A stretch of 64,000 bases of DNA. It comes from Streptomyces sp. BK340. Lineage in GTDB: Bacteria; Actinomycetota; Actinomycetes; Streptomycetales; Streptomycetaceae. Location: assembly GCF_007827595.1 (NCBI RefSeq), contig NZ_VISR01000009.1, positions 1 through 64,000 of the forward strand, given 5' to 3'. The translations under genes and the position numbers were made by a program. Shown in pieces: positions 15,254 through 23,143 of the stretch (its first letter is position 1; every line of letters starts with the position of its first letter). The notes beneath the pieces were generated by a model. The model worked only from the letters and a program-made list of their open reading frames with translations. It was not told where the DNA came from and did no database searches.

Positions 15254-15859
15254 TCAGGTGGTGAGGGCCTGGCGGTGTTCGGCCGCGTACTCCATCGCAT
15301 GCTGGACGACGCCGATGAGGACCTCCTTCACCGACTCCCGGTCGCGGGCGTCGGTCAGCAGGACCGGCACGTCGCCGTCCAGGTCGAGGGCCTGGCGGAC
15401 GGCGTCGGCGGGGTAACGGGCCGCCCCCTCGAAGCAGTTGACGCCGACGACGAAGGGTATGCCGCGCCGCTCGAAGTAGTCGACGGCGGCGAAGCAGTCC
15501 TCCAGGCGGCGCGTGTCGGCGAGGACCACGGCGCCGAGCGAGCCCTCGGACAACTCGTCCCACATGAACCAGAACCGTTCCTGCCCGGGCGTTCCGAACA
15601 GGTACAGCACGAGGTCCTCGCGCAGGGTGATGCGGCCGAAGTCCATGGCCACGGTGGTGGTGTGCTTGCCCTCCACGCCGCTGGTGTCGTCGACCGGGCG
15701 TCCTGCCTCGGTCAGCGACTCCTCGGTGCGCAGCGGCCTGATCTCGCTGACCGCGCCGACGAGGGTCGTCTTGCCCACGCCGAAGCCGCCGGCCACCAGG
15801 ATCTTGAGCGTGACGGGCTCGACCGGGGGCATGCCGCGTTCAGTACGCCCGAGGATCAT
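15254..15859 (-). CDS. cvnD: conservon Ras-like GTP-binding protein CvnD
   Basis: CvnD is the small Ras-like GTPase of the streptomycete conservon signalling module, thought to act with CvnA-C at the membrane like a simple G-protein system. The 201-residue product has the P-loop GGFGVGKTT, the switch motif FGTPGQERF and a VNCF guanine-recognition-like motif. The ATG (MILGRTE) with GGAGAAGAGATCG upstream is chosen; it overlaps the end of the 5-oxoprolinase gene by 20 bases. In usual conservons cvnD follows cvnC directly; here a 3.6 kb gene lies between them. Confidence 0.93.
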
Positions 15860-20342: not shown

Positions 20343-23143
20343 CGACCGTCCCCCTTAGTCGTTCCTTGTGCTGTGCCGTTCCGGGCGTCGCCCGCGGCGT
20401 TCTCCTCACGGCCACGCTGCCAGCCCCGCTGGAGCGAGGCCATCCGGCTGCGGACCTCGTCGGCGTCGCGGTCGGCGGGCTGCGCTGCGCGTTCCGGGAG
20501 CCGTTCGGCCTCCTGCTTCAGCTGCGGGGCCAGGTTGGCCTGTCGTACCCGCCGGGGCAGCGGCCCGGAGGCCGTGCCACCGGCGGGCGGGACGCCGTCG
20601 TCCTGGCCGCCGCCGGAAGCGGCCGCCGCGGGCCGGGTCCGTCTGGGCAGCGGCGGTGCTTCGGAGGTCTGGTTCCCGCCGCCGGACGCGGTGGCCGTGC
20701 GCTCGTCGACGTGGTCGGCGAGTCCGGTGCGCCGGGCCGCCTCACCGCGGCGGCGGGCGGGCAGGGGAGCCGGTCCCCCGGTGTCGGGGTGGCGCGGCCC
20801 GGCCGCCGGCTGCTCGTCCGGTTCGCCGCGGCGGGACCGCTGCTCGGTCACGGGCCTGCCGTGCGAGCTGACCAGCTTCGGCGCCTGGCGCCGGGGCAGC
20901 GGCACGGGTCCGCCGGAGCGGTCGCCGGCCGGGGTGTCGTCGACGCGCGGGGAGGCGGGCTGATGGGGCTCGATCAGCCGGGAGGCCGCCTCGTCCCCGG
21001 CGCGGCCGCGGGAGCGCCGGGGACGGAACAGGCCGCCGCGCTCGCTCTCCTCGTCGGTCAGGGCACCCGGGAAGTCGTCGACGGCGTCCAGGTCCACGGG
21101 AGCCTCCAGCTCGACCGGACCGTCGAGCAGGGAGGTCGGCAGGCCGGGCAGCTGCACCGGGGCCTGCGACCGGGCGGGGGTGAGGCTCGCCGCCGGCTCG
21201 GCCTCCTTCGAGGGGCGGTCGAGGCGGAAGCCGATGCCGTTGGTGTCCGGGACGTCGTCGGTCAGCAGCGCGTCGGGGACGAACACGACGGCGGTGGTGC
21301 CGCCGTAGGGCGACGGCTGCAGGGAGACGCGGACGTTCTGGCGCTGGGCGAGACGGCTGACCACGAACAGGCCGAGCCGGTCCGTGTCCGAGAGTTCGAA
21401 CTCGGGGGTCTCGGCGAGCCGGAGGTTGGCGTCGAGCAGCGCCTCGGCCGTCATGCCGAGTCCGCGGTCGTGGATCTCCAGGGTGAAGCCGTTGGCGACC
21501 CGCTCGCCGAGGACCTGGACGGCCGTGTGCGGCGGCGAGAAGACCGTGGCGTTCTCCAGGAGTTCGGCCACGAGGTGAGTGACGTCGGCGACGGCCGGAC
21601 CGGTGACCGCGACCCGTGCCAGGCGCCGTACCTCGATGCGCTCGTAGTCCTCGACCTCGGCGACGGCTGCCCGGACGATGTCCATCAGCTGCACCGGGCG
21701 GCGCCACTGCCGCGACGGCGCGGCGCCGGAGAGGATCACCAGTCCCTCGGCGTGCCGGCGCATACGGGTGGTGAGGTGGTCCAGTCGGAACAGGTCGGCG
21801 AGTTCGTCGGTGTCCTCGGTCCTGCGCTCCATGGTGTCGAGCAGGGTGAGCTGCTTGTGCAGGAGGACCTGGCTGCGGCGGGCGAGGTTGACGAAGACCT
21901 CGGAGACGCCGGCCCGCAGTTCGGCCTGTTTGACGGCGGCCTCGACGGCTGCGCGCTGGAGGGTGTTGAGGGCCTGGCCGACCTCTCCGATCTCGTTCTT
22001 GTCGTACTCCAGCCGGGGCACCTCGGTCTCGATGTCGACCTGTTCCCCGACGGAGAGTCTGCGCATCACGCTGGGCAGCCGCACACCGGACGCCTCGTGC
22101 GCCTCCAGGCGCAGCTGCCGCAGGTCGCGGATGAGACTGCGGCCGACGCGCACGGACAGGACGACGGAGACCAGGACGGCGAGAAGGCCGAGGACACCGG
22201 CTACGGCGGCCTGCACGATCACGTTCATGGCCACGGGCTCCGTGCGGTCCTGGAAGCGGTCGCCGACCTGGTCGTCCAGGGTTCCGAGTTCGTCGAGCAC
22301 GCTCGCCGCCGTCGAGTCCCAGCTCTGGGCCGTGACACCGCGCGGGGCTCCGGAATCGGTGCCGATGGCGGTCTGTTCGGCCACGCGCAGCGGGGCGGTG
22401 GTGGCGTTCTTCCAGAAGCGTTCGTACCGTTCGCGCTCCGAGGCGGGCAGCAGCGGCAGGCTGATGTCGTACAGGAGGGTGCGCTGGGCGACGAGGTCGG
22501 AGATGTCGCGGGTCTCGTCGTGGGAGAGCGTGCCGACGACGAGTGCCGAGCCGAGCAGGGCGTCCTCGCGGGAGAGCAGTTCGCGGGCGCGGTTCACGTT
22601 GACGAGGGCCCGGGCCTGCTTGTCCATGTCGACGTCGTCGATGCCGTCGAGGGCGTCCAGCAGGGTGTAGCAGGGGTCGACGAGCCGGTTGTAGCGGTCG
22701 AGCGCCTGGGCGCGGTCGACCGTGCGCTGCTCCACGCTGCGGCGCAGGGAGTCGAGGCTGTCGAAGGCGTCCAGGACGGTGGTGAGGCGCTCGTCGTCGG
22801 CCGCGTCCATGGCGTCGCGGACGTTGTGGTCCTCGGCGTTCCTGCGGATGTCGGCGACGGCCCGGTCGGTGGCGGTGCGGGTGCGGTGCAGTGCCGCAAG
22901 GGCGTCGGCCGCGCGCGGGTCGGCGAGGTAGACGAGGGTCTGACGACGTTCCTGCTGCAGGCCGCGGACGGTGTCCTCGGTGGGATAGGCGACCTTCTGG
23001 ACGATGTCGGACACATGGAAGAGCCGGGTGACCTCACGCCCCGTGAGCACCGTGGCGAAGCCCCAGACGGCAGTCAGGGACACCAGCGGCACGAGAAGCA
23101 GCGCCACGATCTTCCGGCGGATCGACTTCCCGCGAAAGCGCAT
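20339..23143 (-). CDS. cvnA: conservon sensor histidine-kinase-like protein CvnA
   Basis: This 934-residue membrane protein starts at an ATG (MRFRGKSIRRK) preceded by GGGGGAGG. It has an N-terminal membrane segment (about 12-32), a large extracellular nitrate/nitrite-sensing (NIT)-like helical region, a second membrane segment near 310-335 and a HAMP-like linker. An ATPase domain follows, with LVAELLENATVFSPP and RGLGM. A long disordered tail rich in Pro, Arg and Gly ends the protein. No canonical phospho-accepting His box stands out, in line with CvnA proteins acting as receptor/anchor rather than classical kinases. It is the first gene of cvnA-B-C-oplAH-cvnD. Confidence 0.93.
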   Translation of the reverse strand: MRFRGKSIRRKIVALLLVPLVSLTAVWGFATVLTGREVTRLFHVSDIVQKVAYPTEDTVRGLQQERRQTLVYLADPRAADALAALHRTRTATDRAVADIRRNAEDHNVRDAMDAADDERLTTVLDAFDSLDSLRRSVEQRTVDRAQALDRYNRLVDPCYTLLDALDGIDDVDMDKQARALVNVNRARELLSREDALLGSALVVGTLSHDETRDISDLVAQRTLLYDISLPLLPASERERYERFWKNATTAPLRVAEQTAIGTDSGAPRGVTAQSWDSTAASVLDELGTLDDQVGDRFQDRTEPVAMNVIVQAAVAGVLGLLAVLVSVVLSVRVGRSLIRDLRQLRLEAHEASGVRLPSVMRRLSVGEQVDIETEVPRLEYDKNEIGEVGQALNTLQRAAVEAAVKQAELRAGVSEVFVNLARRSQVLLHKQLTLLDTMERRTEDTDELADLFRLDHLTTRMRRHAEGLVILSGAAPSRQWRRPVQLMDIVRAAVAEVEDYERIEVRRLARVAVTGPAVADVTHLVAELLENATVFSPPHTAVQVLGERVANGFTLEIHDRGLGMTAEALLDANLRLAETPEFELSDTDRLGLFVVSRLAQRQNVRVSLQPSPYGGTTAVVFVPDALLTDDVPDTNGIGFRLDRPSKEAEPAASLTPARSQAPVQLPGLPTSLLDGPVELEAPVDLDAVDDFPGALTDEESERGGLFRPRRSRGRAGDEAASRLIEPHQPASPRVDDTPAGDRSGGPVPLPRRQAPKLVSSHGRPVTEQRSRRGEPDEQPAAGPRHPDTGGPAPLPARRRGEAARRTGLADHVDERTATASGGGNQTSEAPPLPRRTRPAAAASGGGQDDGVPPAGGTASGPLPRRVRQANLAPQLKQEAERLPERAAQPADRDADEVRSRMASLQRGWQRGREENAAGDARNGTAQGTTKGDGR

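What the first reader, a model, noticed from the sequence alone, without database searches (positions are those of the whole stretch)
15254..23143. Conservon split by a 5-oxoprolinase gene (cvnA-B-C-oplAH-cvnD)
Conservons normally have cvnA-D contiguous. Here a 3.6 kb HyuAB-fusion gene lies between cvnC and cvnD, 24 bases after cvnC and overlapping cvnD by 20 bases. This implies stable co-expression and a possible metabolic output for the Ras-like signalling module.
Basis: partly seen in the sequence, partly recalled or inferred. Interest (0 to 1): 0.65.

Follow-up and report, generated by a model that had tools for sequence, protein, structure and literature searches.

The report
Oxoprolinase gene captured inside conservon operon
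In one lineage of Streptomyces an enzyme gene for recycling 5-oxoproline appears to have slipped once into the middle of a four-gene signalling operon; it is kept in good order in many species and has been lost again many times while the signalling genes stayed, so it looks like a co-expressed passenger rather than a needed part.

Summary
In detail: cvnA-cvnB-cvnC-oplAH-cvnD on the minus strand, with a 24-base spacer after cvnC and a 20-base overlap of oplAH with cvnD. It is not a local oddity. By spacing, 32 of 121 sampled Streptomyces genomes show it (30 of the 32 read directly), as do 22 of the 80 loci kept from a named-genome scan. The trees fit one insertion and nine or ten losses. In 7 of 15 oplAH-less relatives, oplAH debris still lies between cvnC and cvnD. 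The other lineage has contiguous cvnABCD, with oplAH 12-45 kb upstream, on another contig, or absent. OplAH keeps all six catalytic residues tested and is under purifying selection. Genomes without the other 5-oxoprolinase (PxpA) nearly always carry PF02538, 21 of 22. Co-expression is thus supported as architecture but unmeasured. A signalling role is weakened by the repeated losses and by a carnitine-type gene set in the same junction of two relatives. Best reading: a translationally coupled metabolic passenger. The searched library held no report of it.

The parts
20339..23143 (-). cvnA: sensor histidine-kinase-like membrane protein with NIT domain, HATPase_c and a C-terminal tail with several LPxR motifs
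   Evidence: Pfam NIT E 2.1e-46, HATPase_c E 3.1e-8; LPxR motifs read in the translation; LPxR as a conservon mark: PMC4316618 passages
19908..20342 (-). cvnB: roadblock/LC7 (MglB-like) protein, 4-base overlap with cvnA
   Evidence: Pfam Robl_LC7 E 4.6e-26
19503..19898 (-). cvnC: DUF742 protein
   Evidence: Pfam DUF742 E 2.7e-37
19479..19502 (-). 24-base spacer with a likely oplAH ribosome-binding site (GGAG, 7 bases before GTG; read by eye)
   Evidence: sequence; spacer 24 bases in 41 of 54 embedded genome records, 25 in 5, 29 in 2, longer in 6
15840..19478 (-). oplAH: fused HyuA-HyuB ATP-dependent 5-oxoprolinase-type enzyme, 1212 aa, between cvnC and cvnD
   Evidence: Pfam Hydantoinase_B E 7.8e-200, Hydantoinase_A E 2.2e-109; the only PF02538 match in this genome; six catalytic residues conserved
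15840..15859 (-). 20-base overlap: end of oplAH over the start of cvnD; the likely cvnD Shine-Dalgarno (AGGAG) lies inside oplAH and codes part of its C-terminal tail
   Evidence: sequence; tails compared; overlap in 47 of 53 genome records, one of the other six being the G093 debris
15254..15859 (-). cvnD: Ras-like (MglA group 2) GTPase with [17 protein letters not shown] and DAR motifs
   Evidence: Pfam ATP_bind_1 E 6e-35; motifs read in the translation
12864..15168 (+). glpF-glpK, convergent neighbours; glpK is found by the conservon in 33 of 38 embedded rows and 10 of 15 oplAH-less rows
34600..36882 (+). pxpA-pxpB-pxpC: the unrelated prokaryotic 5-oxoprolinase, 11 kb upstream of cvnA (bears on the interpretation, not part of the operon)
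   Evidence: Pfam LamB_YcsF, CT_C_D, CT_A_B; NCBIfam PxpA subfamily over cut-off; PxpB and PxpC equivalog models below cut-off, the PxpC-region domain model over it
32266..32282 (+). conserved palindrome GGATCGTTGAACGATCC between the GntR-FCD regulator gene (31509-32216, -) and the MFS transporter gene of the pxp cluster; the only match in the window with up to 3 mismatches

Best explanation
This is a NIT-type conservon (actinobacterial G-protein system) that captured a 5-oxoprolinase gene once, in the ancestor of one Streptomyces lineage. Shown: the insert sits between cvnC and cvnD; in most records its reading frame runs through the cvnD ribosome-binding site and ends inside cvnD; the enzyme keeps its catalytic residues and is under purifying selection; relatives that lack it keep cvnABCD, some with its debris. 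Inferred from the trees: one gain and nine or ten losses. Inferred: oplAH is read from the conservon promoter and its translation is coupled to that of cvnD; it works as an ATP-dependent 5-oxoprolinase (5-oxoproline to glutamate) that backs up PxpABC; it is a metabolic passenger on the operon, not a part of the GTPase pathway. It persists where a spare or better-timed 5-oxoprolinase pays, and can be deleted without harm to the signalling genes.
For: Conserved layout in 32 of 121 genus genomes by spacing and in 22 of 80 named loci. Embedded OplAH rows form one clade of 56 embedded rows plus one free row, G103 (some genomes appear twice). The conservon tree joins embedded and oplAH-less rows of this lineage on one starred branch; 'no oplAH' needs 10 changes, at least 9 forced by starred branches, among 15 such rows. 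oplAH debris in 7 of those 15 gaps: G093, G091 and G011 by blastn, G068 and G108 above all 200 shuffles, G013 and G110 above all but 1 and 3. In the other lineage cvnC and cvnD overlap by 20 bases in the five junctions read. Median dN/dS 0.176 for embedded oplAH, 0.159 for cvnD with oplAH, 0.194 without. Six catalytic residues conserved. Of genomes without PxpA 21 of 22 have PF02538, against 116 of 168 with PxpA, Fisher p 0.0096.
Against: The layout has lasted through deep divergence with a near-constant spacer, more order than a pure accident needs. In 8 of 15 oplAH-less relatives no debris was found, so there loss rests on the tree, whose root was placed at the midpoint and whose counts cannot by themselves tell gain from loss. 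No RNA, protein or enzyme data were available. The PxpA complement is not corrected for relatedness, and the first, overlapping draw gave 10 of 11 against 74 of 110, p 0.17. NCBIfam gives no model over its cut-off for the enzyme, so the substrate rests on kinship.
Confidence: 0.6

Rival explanations
1. OplAH is a dedicated accessory protein of this G-protein system, a third kind beside CvnE (P450) and CvnF (GAF). It either reports 5-oxoproline/glutamate/ATP status to CvnA-D or is switched by CvnD-GTP.
For: Accessory genes belong to several conservons and CvnF8 binds CvnA8 (PMC13343842 passages). MfpA, encoded right after the mycobacterial conservon, binds GTP-loaded MfpB (PMC4316618 passages). 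Near-constant operon layout and purifying selection.
Against: Nine or ten inferred losses with the conservon kept. The published accessory proteins go overwhelmingly with CvnA that lacks a sensory domain, while this CvnA has a full NIT domain. An unrelated carnitine-type gene set lies in the same junction in G011 and, decayed, in G022. The pxp operator was not found at the conservon.
Confidence: 0.2
2. The insert matters through cvnD dosage: a 3.6-kb gene ahead of cvnD, with coupled translation, sets the level of the GTPase relative to CvnA-C; the enzyme activity is incidental.
For: The likely cvnD RBS and start lie inside oplAH in most records; an AGGAG-like RBS is still seen before cvnD in the oplAH-less gaps printed, read by eye.
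Against: Frequent return to a short spacer without oplAH shows no fixed need for it; catalytic residues and selection argue for a working enzyme. Nothing measured.
Confidence: 0.12
3. The enzyme acts on another cyclic amide (a hydantoin or lactam), not 5-oxoproline. This is not exclusive of the other readings.
For: PDB kin are named N-methylhydantoinase (7hk5) and, for 6yra, 5-oxoprolinase/hydantoinase, described in its paper as caprolactamase. That paper warns that many genes annotated oplAB in Pseudomonas act on other lactams (PMC8453981 passages).
Against: Fused 1200-aa form, complement with PxpA, and oplAH within 3 kb of pxpA in some free-standing loci (8 of 80; 4 of 20).
Confidence: 0.15

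Closest known systems
Conservon / actinobacterial G-protein system (cvnABCD; cvn1-13 of S. coelicolor)
   Same: Four core proteins in the A-B-C-D order with the expected domains; NIT-type CvnA as described for cvn1-6 (PMC8510531 passages)
   Different: A 3.6-kb enzyme gene between cvnC and cvnD; published typical operons are cvnA-D, with an accessory gene following in a subset (PMC13343842 passages)
Conservons with accessory cvnE (P450) or cvnF (GAF) genes
   Same: An extra gene in the operon
   Different: Different protein family and a different place (inside, before cvnD), and beside a CvnA that has its sensory domain
mfp conservon with MfpA (mycobacteria)
   Same: A fifth protein encoded with the conservon
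   Different: MfpA follows the conservon and binds its GTPase by published work; no such link is shown for OplAH
ATP-dependent 5-oxoprolinase / hydantoinase (HyuAB, OplAH) family
   Same: HyuA and HyuB domains and conserved ATP and metal sites
   Different: Sits in a signalling operon; 20-21 residues follow the GGGG of the C-terminal glycine motif in 13 of 18 embedded rows read (4-11 in 11 of 15 free-standing rows), in 12 of these 13 partly encoded by the cvnD RBS and start
PxpABC prokaryotic 5-oxoprolinase
   Same: Presumably the same reaction; encoded 11 kb away in this window
   Different: Unrelated proteins; own GntR regulator gene and palindrome

Membership tests
Conservon / actinobacterial G-protein system | CvnA-like kinase, roadblock CvnB, DUF742 CvnC, MglA-type GTPase CvnD encoded together | tested here: met
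   order
Conservon / actinobacterial G-protein system | cvnD directly after cvnC (three genes from cvnA) | tested here: not met
   oplAH intervenes; cvnD is four genes from cvnA, so the synteny rule quoted from PMC13343842 would score it absent. Descent from a contiguous conservon is supported
Conservon / actinobacterial G-protein system | CvnA C-terminal extension with LPxR motif | tested here: met
   several LPRR/LPxR motifs in the translation; criterion from PMC4316618 passages
AGPS accessory protein (CvnE/CvnF class) | P450 or GAF domain gene following cvnD | tested here: not met
   Hydantoinase A/B domains, gene before cvnD
AGPS accessory protein (CvnE/CvnF class) | Cognate CvnA lacks an extracytoplasmic sensory domain | tested here: not met
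   NIT domain E 2.1e-46
AGPS accessory protein (any class) | Binds or modulates a Cvn protein | not testable with these tools
   needs experiment
ATP-dependent oxoprolinase/hydantoinase (OplAH) | HyuA + HyuB domains over the full length | tested here: met
ATP-dependent oxoprolinase/hydantoinase (OplAH) | ATP-site aspartates and four metal ligands needed for activity in CapAB | tested here: met
   D9 and D276 match CapA D11 and D295; D717, H775, D778, H809 match CapB D41, H99, D102, H124 (alignments; residues; numbering by my own count)
5-oxoprolinase proper | Converts 5-oxoproline to glutamate | not testable with these tools
   indirect support only: complement with PxpA; NCBIfam has no hit over cut-off

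The most novel reading that the evidence does not exclude
OplAH is a third class of accessory protein of actinobacterial G-protein systems: a metabolic enzyme whose 5-oxoproline/glutamate turnover is reported to, or switched by, the Ras-like GTPase with which it is translationally coupled, in a lineage whose CvnA already has its own outside sensor.
Probability: 0.12. Interest if true: 0.8.

Novelty: new variant of a known kind. Interest (0 to 1): 0.42.

Why it matters
Conservon signalling is still poorly understood at both input and output. Here nature has done the deletion experiment many times: the same conservon exists with oplAH, with oplAH debris, and without it, in relatives. That makes the question 'is the embedded enzyme part of the pathway?' directly testable. 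It also warns that surveys which require cvnD three genes from cvnA (PMC13343842 passages) will score these systems as lacking cvnD and will not see the insert. It further offers a case of gene capture inside a tightly packed, probably translationally coupled operon.

Tried and rejected
Rejected: a unique accident or assembly error of this genome (tens of genomes). Rejected as less likely: repeated independent insertions (one OplAH clade, one conservon clade, the same junction, debris in 7 of 15 oplAH-less relatives). Rejected: the in-conservon gene being the free-standing Streptomyces oplAH simply moved from 12-45 kb upstream; that one is a different OplAH lineage at 64-71% identity. Rejected: the embedded layout as a family-wide trait; none of the 13 loci read from other Streptomycetaceae genera has CvnC or CvnD within the 1.5-kb flanks (13 of the 20 loci, read; the weaker matches got no loci).

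Led nowhere: the consensus promoter and terminator scan found nothing (such organisms are poorly covered by it). Search for a shared regulator: the palindrome at the pxp promoter occurs once in the window, and in the genome only there plus one one-mismatch site on contig C17, so no sign of shared GntR control of the conservon. Pfam and NCBIfam gave no substrate. Literature: conservon with oxoprolinase and conservon with hydantoinase returned no paper; 5-oxoprolinase with Streptomyces listed 11 papers, judged by title and abstract start only, none with evident bearing. The original description of PxpABC (PMC5625064) is not held; what I say of it comes from passages of PMC13274462.

The two PxpA-lacking genomes that one search did not list were worked out from the lists as G273 and G275; the match of G228 below cut-off was counted as absent. 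One search kept the best 80 of at least 588 candidates. Of 174 loci with an OplAH hit 146 were kept for the OplAH set (the 28 others were short or held a stop); from those I left out 26 proteobacterial loci, L001 and two identical sequences to reach 117 rows. Rows dropped from the conservon tree: L047, L055, L189, L195, L211, L212, L213 (truncated or lacking a gene). In that tree 'contiguous' and 'no oplAH' were told apart by a rule of mine (cvnC-cvnD distance under 60 bases and CvnD identity under 80.5%). Some genomes enter the trees and dN/dS twice, as named and unnamed records. Embedded status of G063 and G111 rests on spacing only. dN/dS is a simple pairwise count on GC-rich genes, pairs with dS 0.1-2 only. 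On re-checking I found that my first reading of debris was by eye for four gaps; one search tested all 15, and the numbers above are from it.
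Full report
What is there. Pfam finds NIT and HATPase_c in CvnA, Robl_LC7 in CvnB, DUF742 in CvnC, all four hydantoinase/oxoprolinase domains in one 1212-aa OplAH, and a P-loop family for CvnD. The spacer after cvnC is 24 bases and the overlap with cvnD is 20 bases. glpK and glpF face the operon from the other side.

The genome. The window is contig C9, bases 1-64000, of a 10.3-Mb assembly whose close kin are Streptomyces. This oplAH is its only PF02538 gene. It has 13 DUF742 loci. Of the other 12, 10 have a cvnD-like gene right after cvnC with no gene-sized insert, and 2 have no recognisable cvnD in the 10.5 kb fetched. Loss of the GTPase gene from conservons is already described (PMC4316618 passages).

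How widespread. CvnB orthologues were found in 112 of 121 genomes of the genus, PF02538 in 84 of 121. Matching the places of those 112: 32 have the HyuB domain 2.5 to 4.8 kb after cvnB, and I read 30 of these 32 directly. Another 38 have it 12-45 kb upstream of cvnB on the same strand; 33 have no PF02538; 7 have it on another contig and 2 far away. In a scan of named genomes 22 of the 80 loci kept are embedded, all Streptomyces by title, including S. cellostaticus, S. antibioticus and S. hyaluromycini. At family level 46 of 101 genomes had an OplAH match at E 1e-100 or better (one of them only at 35% identity). Of the 20 loci returned, the 7 from this genus are embedded and the 13 from other genera are not.

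One gain, many losses. The OplAH tree puts all 56 embedded rows in one clade with a single free-standing member, G103. The conservon tree (CvnA+B+D, 76 rows) separates 23 rows with tightly contiguous cvnABCD from 53 rows that are embedded (38) or lack oplAH there (15). Within the latter, 'no oplAH' needs 10 changes, at least 9 forced by well-supported branches; if oplAH was gained once, these are losses. The cvnC-cvnD gaps bear this out in 7 of 15 cases. G093 keeps pieces of the start, middle and end of oplAH, G091 both ends, G011 a start piece. In a test against 200 shuffles of each gap, G068 and G108 match the oplAH start above every shuffle, G013 and G110 above all but 1 and 3. By the tree these seven fall in at least five separate losing branches. 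The other 8 gaps (G117, G077, G118, G107, G109, G059, G103, G092) show nothing above shuffles or are too short, so there loss rests on the tree. In the other lineage cvnC and cvnD overlap directly by 20 bases in the five junctions read, which I take as the ancestral state. G103 has a kin copy of oplAH elsewhere; it may have moved it, or regained one.

Coupling. Of 18 embedded OplAH proteins read, 13 end 20-21 residues after the GGGG of the C-terminal glycine motif; of 15 free-standing ones 11 end 4-11 residues after it and 4 later (L066, L074, L075, L186). In 12 of those 13 (not L196, which has a gap) the extra tail is coded in part by the cvnD ribosome-binding site and start. Counted by genome record, oplAH overlaps cvnD in 47 of 53; the other six (G003, G002, G021, two named strains, and the G093 debris) have gaps of 24-288 bases. 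The spacer after cvnC is 24 bases in 41 of 54, 25 in 5, 29 in 2, and 144 to 2381 in 6. A named and an unnamed record can be the same strain. This is what a translationally coupled operon looks like. It is not proof of one transcript.

The enzyme. It aligns over its length with the hydantoinase/oxoprolinase family in the PDB (7hk5 E 4.5e-142; caprolactamase 6yra). The two ATP-site aspartates and four metal ligands whose loss nearly or wholly kills caprolactamase (PMC8453981 passages) are all present. Median dN/dS among embedded copies is 0.176, close to 0.159 for cvnD and 0.172 for cvnC. The unrelated 5-oxoprolinase PxpABC is also in this window at 34600-36882. In 8 of the 80 named loci, and 4 of the 20 free-standing loci read, oplAH lies within 3 kb of pxpA. 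Among 190 near-complete genomes, 21 of 22 without PxpA have PF02538, against 116 of 168 with PxpA, p 0.0096 without correction for kinship. The exception, G228, has only a hit below cut-off. The first draw of 121 showed the same direction (10 of 11 against 74 of 110, p 0.17; its exception, G079, is 78% complete). PF02538 also hits other hydantoinase B genes, so these counts are somewhat generous.

Is it part of the signalling pathway? For: near-constant layout, purifying selection, and precedents for accessory proteins (CvnE, CvnF, MfpA). Against: the conservon outlives the enzyme gene again and again, with dN/dS of cvnD 0.194 without oplAH. The reported pattern that accessory proteins go with CvnA lacking a sensory domain is not met, as this CvnA has a NIT domain. 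In G011 a second, unrelated set on the opposite strand (IclR-type regulator, keto-acid cleavage enzyme, carnitine-dehydrogenase-like and thioesterase genes; all NCBIfam hits below their curated cut-offs) sits in the same junction; in G022 a partial version lies between cvnC and an intact oplAH. The pxp palindrome was not found at the conservon. I therefore favour a co-expressed metabolic passenger (0.6) over a dedicated accessory protein (0.2).

Novelty. The searched open-access library has no paper holding conservon with oxoprolinase or with hydantoinase; subscription journals are mostly not in it. The 2026 survey of these systems scored cvnD only at three genes from cvnA, so it would not have seen this. 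I call it a new variant of a known kind. Papers were seen as search listings and passages only; none was read whole. Ribosome-binding sites, G-box motifs and residue numbering are my own readings of the sequence.

Noticed in passing
L157 (G011) 9881-13437, minus strand; L190 (G022) about 9830-11980: A carnitine-catabolism-like set (thioesterase, carnitine-dehydrogenase-like, keto-acid cleavage enzyme, IclR-type regulator) lies between cvnC and cvnD in G011; a partial version lies between cvnC and an intact oplAH in G022. NCBIfam hits are below curated cut-offs.
   Followed up: partly
L234 (G000:C9:86500-97000) and L235 (G000:C12:206500-217000): Two other conservons of this genome have cvnA, cvnB and cvnC but no recognisable cvnD in the 10.5 kb fetched; an alcohol dehydrogenase gene and an aldo/keto reductase gene, respectively, lie downstream.
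   Followed up: partly
window 31509-36882: A GntR-FCD regulator gene, MFS transporter gene and pxpABC form a cluster with a conserved palindrome GGATCGTTGAACGATCC at 32266-32282. The layout resembles the pxpR-pxpTABC locus of Corynebacterium glutamicum but with a different transporter family.
   Followed up: partly
genus sample: In the other Streptomyces lineage a different OplAH lineage sits 12-45 kb upstream of the same conservon, sometimes near pxpA, so the same chromosome region seems to have gathered oxoprolinase genes more than once.
   Followed up: partly
L191 (G087): About 1 kb of extra sequence and an oplAH hit in two pieces after cvnC; content not identified.
   Followed up: no
L236 (G000:C7:33000-44000): A second roadblock gene follows a complete cvnABCD, perhaps part of an adjacent duplicate conservon.
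   Followed up: no
G228: A near-complete Streptomyces genome with neither PxpA nor a PF02538 match over cut-off, the only one of 190 by the lists.
   Followed up: no
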